NCBI GenBank assembly: GCA_025267735.1 | Contig: CM046309.1 | Span: 58,348,319-58,412,318 of the forward strand | Origin: Mactra quadrangularis | Taxonomy: Eukaryota; Mollusca; Bivalvia; Venerida; Mactridae | Reading direction: 5' to 3' | Length of the DNA: 64,000 nucleotides | In this document: positions 6,565 through 64,000 of the stretch, piece after piece | Position numbering within the stretch: the first letter of the stretch is position 1 | Layout: the number at the start of each line of letters is the position of its first letter | Notes under the pieces: model-generated | Databases searched by the model: none | What the model was told of the DNA's origin: nothing | The model's input: only the letters and a program-made list of their open reading frames with translations | Position numbers and translations under genes: made by a program

Positions 6565-12811
<6,247 letters not shown>

Positions 12812-21150: not shown

Positions 21151-21381
21151 GAATTTCCAAAATGTATCTGTTCATTCGTGTATTTTTTTACTATAAGTCA
21201 TTTTTAAGTAGCTATTTTTCTCAGTGCTAAACAGATTTAATGGTAATGTAGTTTACATTATTAATATGTTGCATTATTCTGCAAAATGTGTATAATGTGG
21301 TTGTGGTTCGAAAGTCTGGACTCCCCCCCCCTAGAAAAATTTCGGATACCCCCCTAGAAATAAATCCTGGATCCGCCCCTG
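21151..21381 (+). repeat. Family C repeat (GGGGCGGATCC ends), copy 1
   Basis: Carries the family body (TTTCCAAAATGTATCTGTTC, GCATTATTCTGCAAAATGTG, GGTTCGAAAGTCTGGA) and the end ATCCTGGATCCGCCCCTG. The left end is missing. Similar AATGTTTACACAAAAA sequence lies on both sides. Confidence 0.7.
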
Positions 21382-23441
21382 CATGTGCACATTGAATTAT
21401 ACATATATTAAAAAGTAATTAAATTTTAAACATAGCAATGTTTACACAAAAAATCAAAAGTCAAAACAGTTATATAGTTAAGAAAACATATAACACATTA
21501 CATTATTACAATACCGGTAAAACAGACTAAGGCCATGCCAAATCGGAACTCTGTTAAGCGTCAACTTAAATTTGACAAACCTAGGTACCTATTCACAAAT
21601 GCACACAAACCGAAAACACAAATATTTTTTACGACAAAAGACAATGCATTATATATTTTTTTAAAAGAACAACATTCTCATATGAAAAAATGGTCTGAAT
21701 TTAATATAAAAAAAAATTCACATAAAATATACATTGTATCAATGATGTGGTTATGAAAAATGTGGTTGCCAAACAGAATTTTCACTGAATTAAATTGTCG
21801 TATTGAATTCCAGAACATCGGAATTATTTAAGAAAAGTTAACCAACAATTTTGTTTTTTATTTTGATTGAGAACTCTAAAACCTACGCACACGGGGACAC
21901 TTAACAAAATTCCAATATGGCATGGCCTAATTTAAAATATAAAATAATATCAACTGATTAAAAATGAAACAATATCAAATAACATAAACTTAAAGTTTTA
22001 AAATCTTTTATCAACAATGACACAAAATGTGGTCTGTGTAATTTGCAAGGTACATACATGAGCCAAATGTAAAATAGAATCTTAGAATAAGTCTCTAGAC
22101 GCTTATCTATGCCGTTTTTGAGATTACGCACAAATGCTAGGGGTCCGGGAGCATGCCCCCTCCCTGGAAAAACAATTTCCGCCACATTGGCTAAGATGCA
22201 TTTTGGTGATACTTTAACCATGGGTTGTATGCTAATTAGACAACAGAAATACCGTTCGTTCTATCCTATTTTTATGAAATCTGCAATTTTTATACGGGCA
22301 AATAAAAAGTAACCCGGGTTAGACATCCAATTTCCCAGTGTTTTTTTGATTTTTTAGATTTTCAATATCTGGAATCGAGGTTTAGCAAGTGCGTGAAATA
22401 CGCAATGGCAGATATGCGCCCATAAGTGACTCTGGTTATTGGCCTAGTAGTCTATTTTTCCCCAAACAAATCTTTCCCCAAGGAAAAAAGGGGAAATGGC
22501 TTGATATACCAATATATCTAAACTAAGTCTTAAGTCTGGACTACAAATAGCACTTTAATAGCTTCATACTTTATTTTTTATACCAACTCATAAAAACACA
22601 AGGCACTAACAATATCACTGGTGTAATCAACAGACAAGACCTAACCTGTCTCTCTACTGAAGAGTCAAAAATATTGTCACATGATCATGTGATCAAAAAA
22701 TTCACATAGACCAGTTTGTTCAGAGACTGAAAATTTAGCAATTCTGAATGGAAAGTTGATCAACAAAAGCCTGTAACCTTTTTTCATAGATTCCCCTAGG
22801 TTAATGAATGTGATACTGTGTAAATATTGCATAGTGATTCAAATTAGCGATATACATCTGAGCAAGCATATTATAGAATGGCATCTAGCTAAATATGCAA
22901 CTACTCTAATACTCCACTGTTTTTTACCCACTGTTAATAATTAGGCATTTATCTATTATCTGGCTAATGGACTCTTCTTGGTTTCAATAAATCGTTTTCA
23001 GTTCCTAAAATCTGTAAATGGTTCTTACATAAGATTACAGTTACTGGAACAAAAAGTTTGAACTTTCCCGCCCAAATGAAAGTTAACTGGTCCGAAAAAA
23101 ACCTGAGTATGTAATTTGAAAAATTATACAGTCCATTTTATTAATTCAGCATGGTTTATCCTAAAACTGAATGCATAATATACATACGAAAAAATATCTT
23201 ATGTAAACAGTTTTCGACAAATCATTACACTTTTTTTTTTCATGCATGTAATTTCTAATTGATATGATTTTTTTAATCAGGAAAATAGTGGCTTCTAAAA
23301 GTTAGAGGACCACCCACATTTTAAATGTCACTGGGCTGACAGCATTTGTGTCCATAACCCACCAGTTAAATTTATAGACAGTAAGGCACAGGCAGTCTTG
23401 TCAGTTGATTTATGAATTACAGTAGGTCTATACAAACAGGA
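21382..23441. other. Noncoding stretch
   Basis: No credible exon. It has one dispersed-repeat-like segment at about 22095-22200 (GGGTCCGGGAGCATGCCCCC) and a small hairpin at about 22455-22495 (TTTCCCC and GGGGAAA). Otherwise nothing recognised. Confidence 0.4.
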
Positions 23442-33503: not shown

Positions 33504-36500
33504 GTTTGAGTTAAATTTATTTTCGATTAGACAGCATGGTTATACGAGTTTAAAATGTGTGTCGAACTAGTTGCTTCCCTTGTCGCGTATTAACACCGTA
33601 CTAATTGCCTCCCTTGGCGCGCATGCCGTGATCCCAACAGGGACCAACGATCGAGGCATTAATATAACTTGTTAATATTTTATGATACATTTAATTTTGT
33701 TTCTTTAAGGTCTTTTTTCTTACCGTATAGTTACATTTTCCATTCATTGTGCCATGGTTTGTCTATGAATGCTTTTGAGCGCGTAAAATAGATAAAACTT
33801 TTTTGTGTCATACATGTATGCCAATCTCGTACCCCGAGGTTATCAAGATTCTCGATCTTAGTATCGAGAATCCTACTAAACTCTGGGTACGAGAATGCAT
33901 ACATGCATGCTTTTATTAATTTTTTTGATGTTATATACTTGCGCGCGTTACATTTACATTGTACGTGTATTTTGTGCATGTATTATTTTGATGTTAATTT
34001 TGTTATATATATATATACATTTAAAATTGCTCGTGTTGCATGTGCATGCATACTTTTAGCTACTTTTAATTTTCAAACTTTGTAATCATGGGCGCATAGT
34101 CGTGACGATGTATTTAGATTTTATTATTTGTAAATTGTATACCAGCACGAATGAGGAAAAAATACATGTTACTTAGTTAGTGGCCTCACGAAATACCACA
34201 CACTACCTTCGTGAGTGAATCTAAAGTATTGAGAAAGAAGGAAAAATAGTTTACTAATTTCATTTTGGTCGCTGTTTTCCTCCAAAAAAAGGGCCCTGCC
34301 ACATTTCCCTTAATAAACGCTGTTATAGTTCAAATAAATCATTTTCCAGGGAGACCATTATGATAAGAGTAGACCAGCCTATACTGACGACTTAGTATCT
34401 CATGTATTAAAAAATCTACACTTTGGAAAGTCAGAAGGTAAGTCTGGAAATTGGTTTATGAAATTTGATTATACATTGAACATTGTGAATTGAAGTTTTC
34501 GTCAAAAACGTTCTAAAAGCTACACACCTACAATTTTGTTTATTTTTTCTGTAGTTACTATTCAAAAACGGATTGCAGTTTTGTATTTAAAATGCTGTAG
34601 TGTATGCATATATATAGTTTATTAAATTCATACATATAGAAACAAAACTTTGAAGTCTTATTAGTCTTAAAATATATCATTTGCCTACTCAAAATGTACA
34701 TGTTATTTTCTGTAATTGTGGTCAAAATGAACTCTTAACAATTTTAGGCAAACTGACTTATTGATTGTGAGATATATAATAAAAAGTAAAAAATACGCAC
34801 TAATTCTTGTAATTCGTAACTAACGGGGTATGTTACTGTACTTTGATTTACTATCTTTGAATGACGGTAATTTGCACTAGATTAATTGTCATTATTAGAA
34901 CACTGCTTTACTACATCGAAAACTTCTACACAAATTTGAATGCTCAAGAAAAAAATATGTTTAAATTAAAATTCGTGATAAAGCCTCTTTAATGTTTTAA
35001 CTTAATCAACAGTTTAATATATTCTTGTGTTTGTATCATTCAGGTCTTAGTTGTGATATTCTAGAGCTAGGAGCAGGAACTGGTAAATTTACATCAAAAT
35101 TATTTCCATTGTTACCAAAGGTAAGTTTTTTAAAACCATCCATGCAAATATCAACAAGTGTAGGTATGAATCCATCGTCAGTGTATGTGTGCAAAATCTG
35201 TTTACTATGTTCATATAAATTCGAGACTATTATTTACTATATGCAATTAGTCTGCTGTCAAAATTAAAATCTAAACTATTTTGAAAAGTGCACATGCGAT
35301 AAAAATGTCTAAGTAGTCGAATATTTCGTGTCCTATGACGTGGTATTAATATTGAACGTGACGTCATCGGAAAAAAGGTCCAGAGATAGCACAAAGGTAT
35401 GCGTTTTGAATTTAAAAGGCTTGAAGGTACGTAACTTGACATTTAGGTTGAAATAAATGAATGTTCCAAAATCAACAAATAGTTTTATGTTTAAACAAAA
35501 ACGAGTATTCATTTAAAAAGAAACAAATACAGATAAAACGATAACCCCTCTCTCATAGAACCTACATACTGTTTCTAATCTATTGCAGGGAACCAAATAT
35601 CTAGCGACGGAACCATCGGAAGGTTTCTTATCTGTTCTGAAAGATAAATTTGATGATATTGATACCAAAGTGTGCACAGCCACAGACATTCCATTCAAAG
35701 ACAACACTGTACAGGTTTGTTAACTACCATTACACTTTTCCTGAAAAAAAAACACAATCCGCTCCATAGTCCGGGCCCCCTAGAATTTCCTAAATGTACC
35801 TGTCCATTAGTGTATTTCTTGACTTTAAGTCATTTTTAAGTAGCATGAAGCATTTTTTCTCGTTGTTTAACATAGGTTTAATGGTTATGTAGTTTTTATT
35901 ATTAATATGTTGCATTATTCTGCAGAAAGTGTATAATGTGGTTGTGGTTCGAAAGTTTGGACCCCCCCTAGAAAAGGTTTGGACCCCCCCCTTGAAAAAT
36001 ATCATGGATCCGCCCCTGCTCTCTTTATATTCTTTTGTTTGAGTTAATTAAAATGTTAATAACTTTTTTTGATAATATAGATAACAGATTGATTTTGTGA
36101 CTGTACATACTTTAATATTGTAATTGAGCTTAAGTCGAGTGGCCGGACGCTCACTTAGAGATCTTGTGATCCTGAATTCAAACTACACGTGGGGCACTGC
36201 AAATTTCCTTGAACAAGAAATTTACCTGCTTTTGATCCCCTTTACCTAGGTGTAAATAGGTGCTGCGAACTCTGGGACTAGAGTCCTTAAACTTGTTATA
36301 TACGCACTCATATACTTTAATAGTAATATTTATCAACGAACTCAATTAAAATCGGCCCCGTATACATTCGTATACAAGTTATAACCATACTTTTATTACA
36401 TTACATGTATATACATTGTATTCTATACAAGGTAGTGCACATGTAGGCTATACACAAGGGACTACATATAGGGACATATTATTTCATTTTATTATTTATG

Positions 36501-39090
36501 ATCTTAAGTTATGGACTCTGGTGCCAGTGGCTGCGAGGGATCACCAGCCTGAAGGTAATTGCAATGCTGGTCATTCCTGATGTATTATTATACAAAATCG
36601 TTAAGTTGGCAGAACTTGTATTACACATGGAAGCAGACTTTAAGCCACACTATAACTTTAACTTTTTAGAATGTGATATGTGCTCAATGTTTTCATTGGT
36701 TTGCTGATATGGAAAGTCTAACAGAAATCCACAGAGTTCTTGTTCCAGGAGGTCGATTATGTGAGTTTGTTTGCTTGATTTTGACAGAAGAAAAGCTACA
36801 GTTAATCCTAGTAATCCGTAGTACACGCCGCCATTTTGATTGATTTCGATGCTACCTTCTTTGAAGAATTCTCATTTGTAACTCCACGGCGATCTTCTAC
36901 GATATATTTTCATAAAAAGTGCCGAGGAGTTCCAAATGTAGATTTTCTACGATTCAATGATTGAAGTTTTATAAATAAAACGTTCATAGGTGTAAAATAT
37001 GTATTAGCTGATTTTGCACAGTAATACCTCACGAAAAAATCATTGACCATTTCATTCGTTCTTTATGTTCCTTAAGTATATAGATCAAAGGTGCCTGACA
37101 CTGTCTCTTATCAAGACACTACTTCTTGTAGGAGCAGTGGTCCAGCGGTACGACGCGCGCTTAGGGATCGAGAGGTCCGTTGTGCCTTTGTCGGCTGCAC
37201 TCAGCAGAGTAAAAGACTCCCAGGGAGTTTGATAGATAGATACCAGTAGCTCGATGACCAGGGGTAATAGTTGTAAAGTCGGTGAACATGCATAAGCTTG
37301 AAACATGGACATTACTTTTTTGCATAACAATACATTAAAGGTTTATTACTCAGAAGTAAAAAGGCTTTTACTCAAGTTCAATTAATTTCCTGTTTTCTCA
37401 TTATAAATGCATTAAATTCACAGTTGTATTCATGTTTGTGTAGCTAAAACATTAATCTTTCGAATGATACTGTTGTTAGATTTTATTCATCTGTCACTGG
37501 CACATGCTTTAACCCCGCTGATTTAAATACCTATTACAGTATTTCTGTACCCATGATTGGTAAAAATAGACTGCCGTATTCATGCACGGTTTCAGTTGAG
37601 TTAAATTTAACTATAGCATATGTTAAAAATGCCTAGTTACAAAGTCGTAGACAAAACATCGATTATGGTTATTGCCTATCGCCTCTGGATAATATTGCTT
37701 GTTTATTTTTTTGTTTCGACAATTAGTTTTAGTTTGGAATGTCAAAGATGTAGGTATAGAATGGTTAGGCCGTATGGAAGAAATTTTGGAAGTATACTAT
37801 GGCGATACCCCTCGTAAACGTAGTGGTAAATGGAAGAATGTATTTGATGGAAATGACAAGTTCAGTTGTGTTGAACATATTATTCAACCTGGTATACAAT
37901 TAAGAGTATGTATGTCTTTATGGACTTGTATTAAATTTACAATACTACAATTTCTCTGATCAAGTTAAAACTAACGAAGTAAAGTTAGCATATTCTAATT
38001 TGTGTCATTCACTGTATCTCTTTAGTTTTGATCTTCTTACATCACGTAGTAAAAGCTCCTGTAAAATCTAACATCCACATCAATGTTCATATAGCCGTAG
38101 GTTATCCAATGAAAATGACCCTACATGCTAATCAATCTCTATAAAAAGATATCCTAATGACCACTGTCATTGGATCTCTCGACAACGCACTGAGTGTCAC
38201 GTTCAGGTGATGATTAAGTCAACCAATCAATGCTGAGCTATCATTTAGACGAACCTTATTTAATAGCATCAGAGTTTCGTAATTTCTAATTCTAGACAGA
38301 GTTTTGCGAGCTTTTTTGAGGGTGCATGTTATTCATTGTTTGTGATTGGACTTTTTTTGCGAATTGCACTGAAAATACTGTATAATCAAGACTGTGAATA
38401 CAATGATTGAATTGTGAATATTGTTTGAGCAAAGGTCAGTCAAACGTGACAGCTTTACTTTGAGCTTGTCAGGTGTAAAATACGCGAGTGTGCGAGAGGA
38501 TAATTTTAGATCGAGTTTTAATCAGATTGCATACAGACTTTCTGGCTGTTGTTAAAGAAGATCATAGGCGGATCCAGCGTGGGGGGGGGGGGTCAGGGGG
38601 GTCCGGACCCCCCCTAGAATTTCCAAAATGTACCTGTCCATATGTGTATTTCTTGACTGTAAGTCATTTTTAAGTGGCATGAAGCAAATTTTCTCGGTCC
38701 TTAATATAGATTTAATGGTTATGTATAATGTAGGCTTTATTATTAATATATTGCATTATTCTGCAAAAAGTGTATAATGTGGTCGAGGTTCGAAAGTTTG
38801 GACCCCCCTAGAAGAAGTTCGGACCCCCTAGAAAAGTTTGGTTCCTTTCTAGAAAAATATCCTGGATCCGCCCCTGAAGATTCATACGTATATTCATTAA
38901 TTTATTGCAGGGTAACAAAGACTTTGTTCTGGATCACTATACATCAATCAGTGTGATAGCTCAGCTTGAAGGTGAAGAAAGACAAGTTGCCTTATCAAAG
39001 TTTAAAGATATTCTAAATGATAACTTTGATGACAAAGAAGATATCGTTATTAAATTCAATTCTGAGTATTATTGTACTGAAAAAGTATAA
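33459..39090 (+). CDS. Class I SAM-dependent methyltransferase (7 exons)
   Basis: Joined exons 33459-33503, 34350-34437, 35044-35120, 35589-35714, 36670-36760, 37733-37905 and 38911-39090 give 259 residues with all phases matching. Residues 18-26 read HYDKSRPAY, seen at the start of this small-methyltransferase group. Motif I is ILELGAGTGKF (50-60), the SAM-binding glycine loop. YLATEPS (74-80) carries the acidic post-I residue. ATDIPF (101-106) and ICAQCFHWF (115-123) are the motif III/IV region; VLVPGGRL is motif V. The C-terminal third is diverged, as expected for substrate binding. It belongs to the Methyltransf_11-type cytosolic family; the substrate is unknown. Introns hold SINEs, a palindromic repeat, two family C copies and one 9-bp-duplication element. 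Intact. Confidence 0.9.
33821..33898. repeat. Family A palindromic repeat, copy 2
   Basis: CAATCTCGTACCCCGAGGTT and ATCAAGATTCTCGATCTTAG on the left; TATCGAGAATCC and CTCTGGGTACGAGAATG on the right. Flanks CATGTATGC and CATACATGC agree at 7 of 9 bases, a possible old target duplication. In methyltransferase intron 1. Confidence 0.78.
34350..34437 (+). CDS. Methyltransferase exon 2
   Basis: Encodes GDHYDKSRPAYTDDLV and LKNLHFGKSE. Acceptor CATTTTCCAG; donor GAAG|GTAAGT. Leaves phase 1. Confidence 0.9.
34560..34990. repeat. Dispersed repeat, related to 60748-61100
   Basis: Shares the order of motifs GGCAAACTGACTTATTG, AAAAAATACGCACTAAT, TGTCATTATTAGAACACTGC and a terminal GATAAAGCCTCTTTAA. 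More diverged than the other two copies. In methyltransferase intron 2. Confidence 0.5.
35044..35120 (+). CDS. Methyltransferase exon 3: SAM-binding motif I
   Basis: Encodes LSCDILELGAGTGKFTSKLF. Acceptor ATCATTCAG; donor AAG|GTAAGT. Phase in 1, out 0. Confidence 0.93.
35589..35714 (+). CDS. Methyltransferase exon 4
   Basis: Encodes residues 71-112: GTKYLATEPSEGFLSVL, then CTATDIPFKDNTVQ. Acceptor CTATTGCAG; donor CAG|GTTTGT. Phase 0 at both ends. Confidence 0.92.
35759..36018 (+). repeat. Family C repeat, copy 4
   Basis: CCGGGCCCCCTAGAATTTCC at the left, TGTGGTTGTGGTTCGAAAGT inside, and ATCATGGATCCGCCCCTG at the right end. Begins 45 bp after the exon 4 donor. Confidence 0.78.
36127..36290 (+). 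mobile_element. SINE family 2, decayed
   Basis: GTCGAGTGGCCGGACGCTCA head, then AAATTTCCTTGAACAAGAAA and CCTAGGTGTAAATAGGTGCT. The B box is mutated (AATTCAAACTACAC). In methyltransferase intron 4. Confidence 0.7.
36670..36760 (+). CDS. Methyltransferase exon 5
   Basis: Encodes NVICAQCFHWFADMESLTEI and HRVLVPGGRL. Acceptor ACTTTTTAG; donor TTAT|GTGAGT. Leaves phase 1. Confidence 0.92.
37128..37275 (+). mobile_element. SINE family 2, internally deleted
   Basis: Head GGAGCAGTGGTCCAGCGGTA and GCGCGCTTAGGGATCGAGAG, then a jump to AGTAGCTCGATGACCAGGGG. The TTTCCTTGAGCAAG core is missing. Confidence 0.65.
37491..37560. repeat. Family B palindromic repeat, left half only
   Basis: CTGTCACTGGCACATGCTTT and AACCCCGCTGATTTAAATAC match the left arm; no right arm follows. 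Confidence 0.55.
37733..37905 (+). CDS. Methyltransferase exon 6
   Basis: Encodes WNVKDVGIEWLGRMEEILEV, then YYGDTPRKRSGKWKNVF and SCVEHIIQPGIQLR. Acceptor AGTTTTAG at 37732; donor AAGA|GTATGT. Phase in 1, out 0. Confidence 0.9.
38133..38529. mobile_element. ~390-bp DNA element, copy 3 (old)
   Basis: Starts CAATCTCTATAAAAAGATAT and ends TTTTAATCAGATTG. Shares ACCAATCAATGCTGAGCTAT and TTTTAGATCGAGTTTTAATC with copies 1 and 2 but is more diverged. The target duplication is no longer clear. In methyltransferase intron 6. Confidence 0.75.
38563..38876 (+). repeat. Family C repeat, copy 5
   Basis: CATAGGCGGATCCAGCG and a long G run, body TTTCCAAAATGTACCTGTCC, end ATCCTGGATCCGCCCCTG. Near full length. 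Its end is 34 bp from the exon 7 boundary. Confidence 0.82.
38911..39090 (+). CDS. Methyltransferase exon 7 and stop
   Basis: Encodes GNKDFVLDHYTSISVIAQLE and residues to EYYCTEKV, then TAA. Acceptor TTTATTGCAG. Phase 0. Confidence 0.9.
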   Translation, partial: GNKDFVLDHYTSISVIAQLEGEERQVALSKFKDILNDNFDDKEDIVIKFNSEYYCTEKV

Positions 39091-46850: not shown

Positions 46851-47108
46851 CATGGGTGGATCCAGCGGGGGGTCAGGGGGGTCCGGACCCCCCTAGAATT
46901 TGGAAAATGTTCATGTCCATTAGTGTATTTCTTGCTTGTAAGTAATCTTTACGTAGTATAAAGCATTTTTTCTCGGTGCTTAACATAGATTTAATGGTTA
47001 TGTAGCTTTTATTATCAATATGTTGCATTTTTTTCTGCAAAATGTGTATAATGTGATTGTGGTTCGAGGTTCGGACCCCCCTAGAAAAAATTCCTGGATC
47101 CGCCCCTG
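46851..47108 (+). repeat. Family C repeat, copy 6
   Basis: CATGGGTGGATCCAGCGGG at the left, TGTGATTGTGGTTCGAGG inside, and TTCCTGGATCCGCCCCTG at the right. Just outside, CAAGGACCCTATGTA and TATATAGGGTCCTTG are themselves inverted. Confidence 0.8.
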
Positions 47109-57879: not shown

Positions 57880-57951
57880 CAATCTCTCATACAGAGTTGT
57901 CGATCCTTACAGTGATCACTGTAAGGATCGACAACTTTGTATGAGAGATTG
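57880..57951. mobile_element. 72-bp near-perfect palindrome with 9-bp target duplication
   Basis: Reads CAATCTCTCATACAGAGTTG then TCGATCCTTACAGTGATC, then its complement back to GTATGAGAGATTG, with one mismatch in 36 pairs. Flanked by perfect GTGCTGCTA at 57871-57879 and 57952-57960. The CAATCTCT ends and 9-bp duplication match the 10494/28135 family. Confidence 0.88.
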
Positions 57952-60171: not shown

Positions 60172-60179
60172 GTCTTCAC

Positions 60180-60238
60180 TCGGAACTACCTCGGCGACCA
60201 TTTACTATCTGCGTAGGAGATCGCCGAGGTAGTTCCGA
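60180..60238. repeat. Hairpin with 18-bp perfect arms beside the hAT element
   Basis: TCGGAACTACCTCGGCGA and TCGCCGAGGTAGTTCCGA flank a 23-bp loop. Without the hAT insert, GCTAAG before it and CTTAG after it extend the symmetry, so the hAT probably landed in one arm. Confidence 0.75.
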
Positions 60239-60747
60239 ATGCTTAGTTGCTATAAAACGGAAATGACGTAACATTTTATGGCATCAGCAGTTTTTTGTTT
60301 CTTATTGAGTAATAATCACAAAAGAATAATATGTCTATAGGTTAGTCATAAAATATGGATCAATGCAAAGCTAGTTACAAGTATATGGATCAATGCAATT
60401 TATGTTGAAAAGATAAAAGAAACCATACTGATTGGTTAAAGATTGCGCTAACATATATTGTAATAAAAGAACAAAAAACGTGTGCGTTTATCATCATTTA
60501 ATATTGCTCGACAACTAAGAGGTATACATATTCATGATTAGGTTACAGAGATTTCAATCTTTTCATTTCATGTATTTGCAATTTTCTTTGGTGAAATACA
60601 GTGCTTTTCAAAGTTCTCGGACGAATGAAACTTTGGGCCGAAACCGTTCGCCATCTTTGATGTGTATGCACCGTGTCACGAAATCACTGCACAATTTTTC
60701 GTACCTGACTGTGGATCATGCCTATTTCTAGTTATATGTCTTTAATT

Positions 60748-61552: not shown

Positions 61553-62487
61553 ATTTGAAATGTTTACCACTCTTCTATAACTGACCTAGCATTCAGACAT
61601 TTATTTACTGTTAGTGTTAGTAGATGCACGTTTTGTATAAATGAAAAATCTTATCATTCCAATTAAAATTTATTTCCAACTTTTATCTTAGCCGCCCAAT
61701 TTTTATACCACGTATGTATGTCTTTACCGATCAGCTTATCAGCCCCATGTTTATATAAGTGCTTAAATGTCTAGAATTTACAGCACACGTTTATTAACAA
61801 TAAGCAATTTTATTTATCAGCCAAATGTTTGCCACGCTACTCGGCTACTTCAATTATAATAAAGACTTTATTTATAGAGGCAACACAGTTAGGCAAAGCC
61901 CAATCTTCCCTGTGATTCTTTTAACATTAGTATGTACATAGTATATACAACAAGCCAAGGTAAAACATTTGACAAGTGATCAAACAAATTAACAACAAAT
62001 CTACATTAAAAGAAGTTATGATAATTTAATATTATTAAAGAGAATAAACTCTTGAAATTTACTGGCGAAGTACTATTGAGCATAGTACTAAGTATCTCCC
62101 AGTAAAGATGCTATATTTAATTAATATATCTAGTTTGACGATGCATCGCTATGTACTTAATTGGTGTAAAATCAAATTCTTACTTGTCACGCATGCTCAT
62201 GAAATTATCCTGAATAAGTCGGTATATTTGACTTTACTTATTACCTAATTTGGCTTAATTTGGCTTATTTTAAAACAAAACTGAAATAATTCATTTTTGT
62301 TTTAAAATGAAATTCAGCATATCCATAGGAATGATATTCAAAAACCAATTTCAAATAAAATTGCTTTTTATAATTGTTGTTAATTTTTAGTACATGTTTC
62401 TATGCATAAAAATGATAATATAGTTTTATGTACTAATATGCTAAAAAAATTAAAAATAAAAATATTAAAAATAAAAAGTAAATATTA
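61553..62487. other. Noncoding stretch
   Basis: AT-rich; nothing recognised. Confidence 0.4.
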
Positions 62488-62582
62488 TGGCAGTGACTGG
62501 ATTTGAACCACCAATGTTTAGTTTTGCACTGTTTACCTTCAGCTATTTCCAGCGCTCTAACCGACTGCGCTAAATTGGGTCC
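62488..62582 (-). mobile_element. tRNA-like sequence (SINE head or tRNA pseudogene)
   Basis: On the - strand: GGACCCAATTTAGCGCAGTC and GGTTAGAGCGCTGG (A-box region), then GGTGGTTCAAATCCAG (B box). The acceptor arms do not pair (GGACCCA against CACTGCC) and the middle is too long, so it is not a working tRNA. A T-rich tail follows, as in a short SINE. Confidence 0.55.
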
Positions 62583-63129
62583 TAATATTATATACAGGTT
62601 AGCTGACATATATATAATGACAAGAGTCCCTTTATATTTACTAATTTCCGGCCCCTATATATTCATATTGAAATGGGGAACAGTATTTTTCGTGTTTAAA
62701 AAATGTATAAATGCAACAAAATTAATAAAACTAACTTTTATAATTCTTGTTTATATTATTTAGTGAGAAAATGTTGAAAAATATGTATTGTGATAGCTGT
62801 TAAATATTTATCATTCTTTTGTATTTAAATTATATAGACATGAGAAGATAAATTCTACACACATTTCTTTTTCTTTTGTGATTGATACTTAAATCTTTAT
62901 TATGACAATAAGTCTTTAAATATAAAAATATTTTTTATAAAGGATAAAACATATTCATGTTTCCAGAGAAGTTTTAATATAGAAAGTGATCGTTTTTATT
63001 TACTAGACATGTTTAAAACTTCAGACGTGTGATTTTGCTACAAACCAAGTTATTGTCATTAATATTGTGTATAAGTATTCAAGGTTTTCATGTTGTATTT
63101 CGGTGTAAACCCAAGTGCTTTGGTTCCGT

Positions 63130-63484
63130 TTTCTACGGTATTGGAGCACATTTTTTGTGTTTGACCCTTTAGAGTTGAATACCCAGTCCCTTATAGGGAC
63201 AATATTGGTAGAGTAGTCTCCCTTTTAATAGGGATCTGCTTTTCGAATCGTATAAACGCTGATTTCTACGGAGTTAAAGCGATTTTTTTGTGTTCGGCTC
63301 TCTCGAGTTGAATACCCGTTCCCCTGGTTGGGGGAAGAAGGGTCCAGAAGTTCTCCCCCTTGCTGGGGGAGTTCCGCTTCCCTGAGATCCTCAGCTCTAT
63401 TGCTGAAAGGATTGAGGATCTCTGGTCCCAAGTGTGGGACAAAGTGGGAAAAGTAGTCTTCCCCTATTGCTAGGGGAAAACTAC
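63130..63484. other. Duplicated array of GC-rich stem-loops
   Basis: Two 133-bp units begin TTTCTACGG at 63130 and 63263 and share GAGTTGAATACCC. Stem-loops: GTCCC/GGGAC (63186-63200), TCCCT/AGGGA (63219-63234), TTCCCC/GGGGAA (63319-63336), CTCCCCC/GGGGGAG (63353-63371), GAGATCCTCA/TGAGGATCTC (63384-63422), GTCCCA/TGGGAC (63425-63440), TTCCCCT/AGGGGAA (63459-63478, extended by GTAGT/ACTAC). Three of the loops contain TTGCT. No protein explains it. Confidence 0.75.
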
Positions 63485-63720
63485 AAATCTCTGGGAGGGG
63501 GTTGGGCCTGGAAGGGATTTACCGTGGGGTAGCCCTAGGGGACGGTCCAGGAGGCACTGGGGACGGTCCAGGAGGCACTAGGGGCATCCCTGGAGGTCCT
63601 GGGTGCCGAGTCCTGGGGGGGGGCCGGTCTACGGGGGGGCGTCCTGGGAGAGACCTTGGTGCGGATGGTCTTGGGGGACGGCGACCTTTGTGTGGCATGT
63701 TGCCGCCACAATTTCGCTAT
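63485..63720. repeat. GC-rich segment with 21-bp tandem repeat
   Basis: GACGGTCCAGGAGGCACTGG-type units of 21 bp at 63541 and 63562, followed by looser G-rich relatives. GC content is far above the rest of the window. A Gly-rich open frame here follows from the repeats and is not called a gene. Confidence 0.65.
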
Positions 63721-63912
63721 CAAGGTTTTAGGAGCATCACACCATACATAATGTTAAATCGTTAACAAACGTTTTATAAAAAGTATCTGTTCTCGATAAT
63801 GTGAGAATATTCTCATGTGACGAGTATGACAAACGAATTCCAAACGAATATGTCATATTTTATGTCCCATATTCGGCTGAAGGTTGTGCAATATTGGACC
63901 GAATAACACATG

Positions 63913-63937
63913 TGACATATTCGGACCGAATATGTCA
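63913..63937. repeat. 25-bp perfect palindrome
   Basis: TGACATATTCGG and CCGAATATGTCA around a single A. Related half-sites (GAATATGTCATA, CATATTCGG) lie at about 63845 and 63870. Confidence 0.7.
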
Positions 63938-64000
63938 CCGCGTGACATATACTTTTTGTGGCATATGCGGTCTATTTCAATGATTGTATGCTTTGGTAGT

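What the first reader, a model, noticed from the sequence alone, without database searches (positions are those of the whole stretch)
63130..63484. Tandemly duplicated stem-loop array with compensatory stem changes
Seven GC-rich stem-loops follow one another in 300 bp of otherwise AT-rich genome. The two 133-bp units have diverged, yet both hairpins of each unit keep pairing: GTCCC/GGGAC became TTCCCC/GGGGAA, and TCCCT/AGGGA became CTCCCCC/GGGGGAG. Three loops share TTGCT. Divergence with retained pairing suggests selection on a folded RNA or on a DNA hairpin (recombinase site, element end or structured transcript). No known family comes to mind.
Basis: partly seen in the sequence, partly recalled or inferred. 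Interest (0 to 1): 0.75.

Follow-up and report, generated by a model that had tools for sequence, protein, structure and literature searches.

The report
Triple RNA hairpin module inside transposon
A dispersed jumping-gene-like repeat in an animal (probably mollusc) genome carries three tandem copies of an RNA-like hairpin unit whose stems stay paired although the units have diverged, which points to a structured transcript whose purpose is not yet known.

Summary
The hairpins are real and far beyond chance, and the array is larger than reported. It is three head-to-tail modules of one RNA-like unit (63114-63248, 63249-63384, 63385-63491), 11 consecutive stem-loops in the family consensus. A covariance model trained only on the first two modules recovers the third.

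The array lies inside a dispersed element with terminal inverted repeats and no protein found. The one genome search answered gave 40 long matches, only 40 of 332 candidates being scored. Three copies with both ends span 2.3, 3.2 and 3.7 kb.

The 400-nt consensus folds at -181.7 kcal/mol on the + strand (z -9.3), less well on the - strand (z -5.8). Stems hold 16 G-T pairs against 2 A-C. Between modules, 13 changes in P0 leave 14 of 15 pairs (7.3 expected, P about 1e-4); five pairs changed on both sides. Among dispersed copies covariation is weak and stems diverge like unstructured flanks, so most copies look like relics.

Best reading: a structured + strand RNA carried by a non-autonomous DNA transposon. 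Its job is inferred. Superfamily, target-site duplication and autonomous partner are unresolved.

The parts
61810..63975 (+). Window copy of the dispersed element (left end not found; right end is the terminal inverted repeat)
   Evidence: BLASTN against other copies: homology to about -1247/-1289 and +875 relative to window 63100
63114..63248 (+). Module a (P0-P1-P2-P3)
   Evidence: cmsearch, filters off, 136.0 bits, E 7.9e-34; this copy is a training row
63249..63384 (+). Module b (P0-P1-P2-P3)
   Evidence: cmsearch, filters off, 118.2 bits, E 1.9e-29; this copy is a training row
63385..63491 (+). Module c (P0-P2-P3; P1 missing), not in the training set
   Evidence: cmsearch 48.1 bits, E 3.4e-12; in 17 of 20 sources at E 3.4e-4 or better, two more full-length at 2e-3 and 4e-3, one partial at 0.015
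63115..63149 (+). P0a hairpin, 14 of 15 oppositions paired in the consensus, 4 of them G-T
63157..63182 (+). P1a hairpin, 11 pairs in the consensus, 3 G-T
63186..63200 (+). P2a hairpin GTCCC/GGGAC
63205..63247 (+). P3a compound hairpin
63249..63281 (+). P0b hairpin, 14 pairs in the consensus; decayed in this copy
63290..63315 (+). P1b hairpin, 11 pairs in the consensus, 3 G-T
63319..63336 (+). P2b hairpin, TTCCC/GGGAA in the consensus (6 bp in this copy)
63339..63383 (+). P3b compound hairpin, loop TTGCT
63384..63422 (+). P0c hairpin (P4 in working notes)
63425..63440 (+). P2c hairpin GTCCC/GGGAC
63446..63491 (+). P3c compound hairpin, stem TTCCCCTA/TAGGGGAA
63500..63721 (+). G-rich region of degenerate short repeats, different (by eye) in each of ten copies viewed
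63912..63975 (-). Right terminal inverted repeat, palindrome-rich

Best explanation
The segment is the structured part of a non-autonomous, TIR-flanked DNA transposon family. In the lineage that spawned the copies, three tandem copies of a roughly 135-nt, four-hairpin RNA module (the third, about 107 nt, without P1) were kept folded on the + strand while their sequence diverged. I infer that the + strand is transcribed and that the repeated module works in cis as a multivalent docking or stabilising platform on the element's own RNA, bound by a host or transposition factor. The copies in the genome, this one included, are mostly decaying relics. Shown: three homologous modules, 11 hairpins in the consensus, + strand preference, pairing kept through changes between modules, dispersal inside an element with inverted ends. 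Inferred: non-autonomy, transcription, protein binding, benefit to the element.
For: Consensus of 40 copies: -181.7 kcal/mol, z -9.3 on +, z -5.8 on -; strand difference -47.3 against -23.1 +- 5.3 in 200 shuffles. Window copy z -8.0. Excess folding is confined to the array: of 11 upstream 130-nt windows, 10 lie between z -0.6 and +1.6 on +, one (far left) at -2.8; the six over the array lie at -2.0 to -7.5. P0a and P0b differ at 13 of 30 stem bases yet keep 14 of 15 pairs (random mean 7.3, P about 1e-4); P0c against a and b gives P 0.012, 0.003 and, in the reverse direction, 0 of 20000. On 20 module rows 92.9% of cells pair (shuffled 87.3, 0 of 500; slid structures at most 47.5) and 12 of 36 pairs have double changes (shuffled 7.3, 0 of 500); at five pairs they are nearly fixed between a and b. 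A model trained on a and b finds c in 17 of 20 sources at E 3.4e-4 or better. 16 G-T against 2 A-C in stems. Copies fold better than the consensus mutated at random to the same divergence (mean -157.8 against -147.7, sd 8.8). Dispersed element with TIRs.
Against: No transcription data. Copy-level covariation is weak, and slid structures show more double-changed pairs than the real one; RNAalifold finds 5 of 57 pairs with compensated changes and a covariation term of only -0.18 kcal/mol. Stems diverge as much as flanks. The a-b comparison is in effect one evolutionary comparison, so shuffles over 20 related rows overstate it; the helices and the P3 register were chosen by hand on the same sequences; the number of pair types is not raised (32 against 30.8, 172 of 500). 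Double changes in P0 alone are not beyond chance (P 0.10-0.30). The - strand also folds better than shuffled, and over module c it does at least as well as + (z -2.1 and -3.9 against -2.0 and -3.1). The G-T count uses helices chosen on + strand folds. The gain over column-shuffled copies appears on both strands. In one search antisense or stray matches start at E 0.0023, so the weakest three module-c matches are not clear of noise. No target-site duplication identified in three two-ended copies; 9 of 20 loci showed neither end; no autonomous partner found.
Confidence: 0.55

Rival explanations
1. No function: hairpins made and kept by mutation (snap-back synthesis, template switching, slippage) in a palindrome- and minisatellite-rich transposon.
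For: The TIRs are palindromic, a variable G-rich repeat tract lies next door, and stems do not diverge more slowly than flanks among copies.
Against: Arm-correcting mutation should leave perfect Watson-Crick arms; instead 16 G-T oppositions occur in the stems, and many inter-module changes are one-sided G-T/A-T or G-C/G-T swaps that keep + strand pairing. The strand difference exceeds shuffles.
Confidence: 0.22
2. Single-stranded or extruded DNA hairpins that serve as transposase or replication-initiator sites.
For: Stems also fold on the - strand (z -5.8); the element is a DNA transposon by its ends.
Against: The array is internal, at very different distances from the ends (left TIR 0.4-2.1 kb upstream, right TIR about 0.45-1.4 kb downstream of the array where found), and pairing favours the + strand. 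A role of one DNA strand is not excluded.
Confidence: 0.1
3. A host structured ncRNA gene captured by the transposon.
For: The rest of the core shows little excess structure, as expected of an insert.
Against: No Rfam match. Of the 20 copies opened at length, the window copy and 18 others share contiguous upstream flank of about 200 bp or more, and L018 has the element's left end about 0.4 kb upstream, so none of these looks free-standing; but 292 of 332 candidates were not scored.
Confidence: 0.1
4. A guide-RNA (omega-RNA-like) scaffold of a Fanzor/TnpB-type element.
For: Structured RNA inside a eukaryotic transposon.
Against: No protein domain above cut-off in 8 element ORFs (of 37 listed) and 2 window ORFs over the array; the array is not next to the element end; tandem modules are not a feature of such scaffolds (recalled).
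Confidence: 0.03

Closest known systems
Non-autonomous TIR (foldback-type) DNA transposons with internal tandem repeats, such as Tetris of Drosophila virilis (PMC4079207; listing and start of abstract seen)
   Same: Inverted ends, internal tandem repeats, length variation (compared from this work and recall, not from the paper's text)
   Different: Here the repeat is a four-hairpin module whose pairing is retained by compensating changes, better on one strand
Ginger DNA transposons (PMC2836005; passages seen)
   Same: 11 of 14 ends read fit the TGTNR pattern; TIRs of tens of bp
   Different: No transposase seen and no 4-bp target-site duplication in the three two-ended copies; membership not claimed
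Composite retroelements with a VNTR, such as SVA (recalled)
   Same: A fixed part followed by a G-rich variable tract
   Different: TIR ends here; retrotransposition signs were not searched for

Membership tests
TIR DNA transposon (class II) | Inverted terminal repeats at both ends | tested here: met
   TIR at the left end in 7 of 20 and at the right end in 7 of 20 loci; both in 3 (L014, L021, L024); neither in 9 of 20
TIR DNA transposon (class II) | Target-site duplication | tested here: inconclusive
   No clear TSD at 3 of 3 two-ended copies, read by eye; L021 has a possible 6-bp match with one difference
TIR DNA transposon (class II) | DDE transposase in the autonomous member | not tested
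   The TIR search of the genome did not complete (and repeats up to 106); 8 of 37 listed ORFs of copies and 2 window ORFs without Pfam match above cut-off
Ginger1/Ginger2 | TGTNR termini | tested here: met
   11 of 14 ends: 6 of 7 left, 5 of 7 right
Ginger1/Ginger2 | 4-bp TSD (CCGG/CCGT for Ginger1; RTATAY target for Ginger2) | tested here: not met
   Flanks of L014, L021 and L024 show no matching 4 bp, 0 of 3 (definition from passages of PMC2836005); few and old copies, which may have recombined
Any Rfam family | Score above the gathering threshold | tested here: not met
   0 matches in the window; none in the array up to E 5 or in six copies' loci up to E 0.5
microRNA cluster | Hairpin stems of about 22 bp or more (recalled) | tested here: not met
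   Hairpins have 5-18 pairs in the consensus
microRNA cluster | Small-RNA reads from the arms | not testable with these tools
   No read data

The most novel reading that the evidence does not exclude
A new class of selfish structured RNA: a transposon family that encodes no protein but maintains a modular, tandemly amplified 11-hairpin RNA, with the modules evolving by duplication and compensatory change, used to recruit a host or transposition factor.
Probability: 0.25. Interest if true: 0.8.

Novelty: new variant of a known kind. Interest (0 to 1): 0.5.

Why it matters
I know of few structured RNAs selected within protein-less DNA transposons (recall, not a survey). A three-module RNA with pairing kept across paralogous modules gives a direct handle: at least 40 copies, and possibly hundreds, and a clear fold to test for transcription, protein binding and a need in transposition.

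Tried and rejected
Rfam at gathering and permissive thresholds: nothing in the array. tRNA finding with ARAGORN, with and without introns: none. Pfam on seven window ORFs and eight element ORFs: papain-family peptidase in two window ORFs far away; two weak sub-threshold hits in element ORFs dismissed. Phage records and viral contigs: no match to the array; the five hits of a short pattern (L049-L053) carry no module by the covariance model. RNAalifold on 40 copies gave a poorer structure than folding the majority sequence. A promoter idea (TATAAG 43 nt before the array) is weak: TATAA[AG] occurs five times in the 1233-nt core. Seven literature searches, of which I saw the listed rows only (20 of 22, 3, 3, 8 of 41, 5, 10 of 45 and 4 papers), show no description of such an array; only PMC2836005 and PMC10045372 were opened, passages only.

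The genome search tool answered once with results. It reported itself busy in 29 tries. Hence total copy number, more distant subfamilies, autonomous partner and TSD are open.

Full report
What is there. Window 63114-63491 consists of three head-to-tail modules, exactly abutting: 63114-63248, 63249-63384 and 63385-63491 (cmsearch without filters). In the family consensus modules a and b each fold into four hairpins (P0, P1, P2, P3); module c has P0, P2 and P3 and lacks P1. The covariance model was built from 20 rows, modules a and b of ten of the 40 copies. Over 20 sources it found module c, absent from the training set, at E 2e-11 to 3.4e-4 in 17, full-length at 2e-3 and 4e-3 in two more (L017, L026) and as a part at 0.015 in L024. 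Nine other matches in that table are antisense overlaps or lie elsewhere, the best at E 0.0023, so the last three are not clear of noise. The same filtered run listed module a in 19 and module b in 12 of 20 sources; without filters on the window it listed all three modules, so the filtered counts are too low.

Chance. The window copy folds at -148.2 kcal/mol, z -8.0 on + and -6.3 on -. The majority consensus of 40 copies (400 nt) folds at -181.7 on + (shuffles -124.4 +- 6.2, z -9.3) and -134.4 on - (z -5.8); the strand difference, -47.3, compares with -23.1 +- 5.3 in shuffles. In 130-nt windows over a 1233-nt core consensus of 15 copies the six windows over the array have z -2.0 to -7.5 on +; of 11 upstream, ten lie between -0.6 and +1.6 and the leftmost at -2.8. 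Over module c the - strand does as well as or better than + (-2.1 and -3.9 against -2.0 and -3.1).

It is repeated. The genome has 979 Mb in 447 contigs. The array is a dispersed repeat: 332 first-look candidates, 40 scored, 41 matches, of which 40 are long (82-100% identity, the window included) and one is a 39-bp piece. Twenty copies were opened to 9.5 kb. Homology extends beyond the array, up to about 2.1 kb upstream and 1.8 kb downstream, with internal deletions. Outer borders carry the same inverted sequence, TGTTAGACCGTATATGTCAC and so on: the left in 7 and the right in 7 of 20 loci, both in L014, L021 and L024, neither in nine; the three span 2324, 3197 and 3661 bp, if both ends belong to one insertion. 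The window copy ends at about 63975 in the right TIR; its left end was not found. Eight of 37 listed ORFs of copies and two window ORFs over the array have no Pfam family above cut-off.

Is the pairing selected? Between modules, yes on balance. P0a and P0b differ at 13 of 30 stem bases and keep 14 of 15 pairs; random placement of as many changes keeps 7.3 (P about 1e-4). P0c has 12 of 15 pairs with 12 changes from a and 15 from b (P 0.012 and 0.003). On the 20-row module alignment five pairs carry nearly fixed changes on both sides between a and b (P0 columns 4-36 and 12-28, P2 75-90, P3 109-126 and 115-122), and others change on one side through G-T; paired cells 92.9% against 87.3% in shuffles and at most 47.5% in slid structures; pair types are not raised (172 of 500 shuffles). 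The structure and the P3 register were set by hand on these sequences. Double changes in P0 alone are not beyond chance (P 0.10-0.30). Among dispersed copies the signal is weak: 92.2% of cells paired against 91.9% (2 of 500), 23 cells with double change against 12.9 (2 of 500), 16 pairs with double change against 11.2 (30 of 500), while slid structures have 21-33 such pairs. Leaving out gap-rich columns, stems diverge 6.5% and loops 10.7% (40 copies), unstructured flanks 6.5% (15 copies). Copies differ from the consensus by 4.9-10.6%. They fold better than the consensus mutated at random (-157.8 against -147.7, sd 8.8) and than column-shuffled copies (-152.3 +- 1.0), but the latter holds on the - strand too (-122.3 against -118.6 +- 1.0), so part of it is shared ancestry or symmetric pairing.

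Which strand and molecule. Stems hold 102 Watson-Crick, 16 G-T, 2 A-C and 3 other oppositions. G-T on the + strand is A-C on the - strand. The helices were chosen from + strand folds, which biases this count; the strand difference is controlled by shuffles. This points to RNA of the + strand, or less likely one strand of single-stranded DNA.

How it may work. I infer a + strand transcript of the element in which the module is repeated to bind a factor several times. Transcription, partner and benefit are not shown. Runs of T in the loops and linkers make a pol III transcript unlikely (general knowledge). The tract that follows, 63500-63721, is G-rich and made of degenerate short repeats (periods of 16-18 bp in L021, about 21 bp in the window), arranged differently by eye in each of ten copies viewed; it could be a variable-number tract of the same transcript.

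Placement. By its ends the element is class II; superfamily unknown. Eleven of 14 ends fit TGTNR of Ginger, but no 4-bp duplication is visible in three copies, so I do not file it there. The nearest kind is a non-autonomous TIR element with internal tandem repeats. The seven literature searches do not show this array in the rows listed; most subscription papers are not in that library, and Repbase or Dfam could not be searched, so the element itself may already be listed there.

Noticed in passing
window 62490-62583 (minus strand): tRNA-like sequence with A-box-like TAGCGCAGTTGG and B-box-like GGTTCAAACCC motifs (motifs recalled; letters from the core consensus) inside the same element; ARAGORN and Rfam do not call it a tRNA.
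   Followed up: partly
window 63500-63721: G-rich tract of degenerate short repeats, different between copies of the element.
   Followed up: partly
window 57880-57951: 72-bp nearly perfect palindrome, 97% self-complementary.
   Followed up: no
window 60179-60239: Stretch that matches miRNA families mir-9424 and mir-3150 on both strands far below their gathering scores; probably a small palindromic element.
   Followed up: no
window 21151-21382, 35769-36019, 38587-38834, 46867-47093: Dispersed repeat family in the window; short tandem GGACCCCCCTAGAA-like units lie in some copies.
   Followed up: no
window 7713-8630: Two pieces of a papain-family (cathepsin L-like) peptidase in separate frames.
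   Followed up: no
L013, right ends at +993 and +1249 relative to the array query: Right end of the element together with its flank appears twice, 256 bp apart.
   Followed up: no
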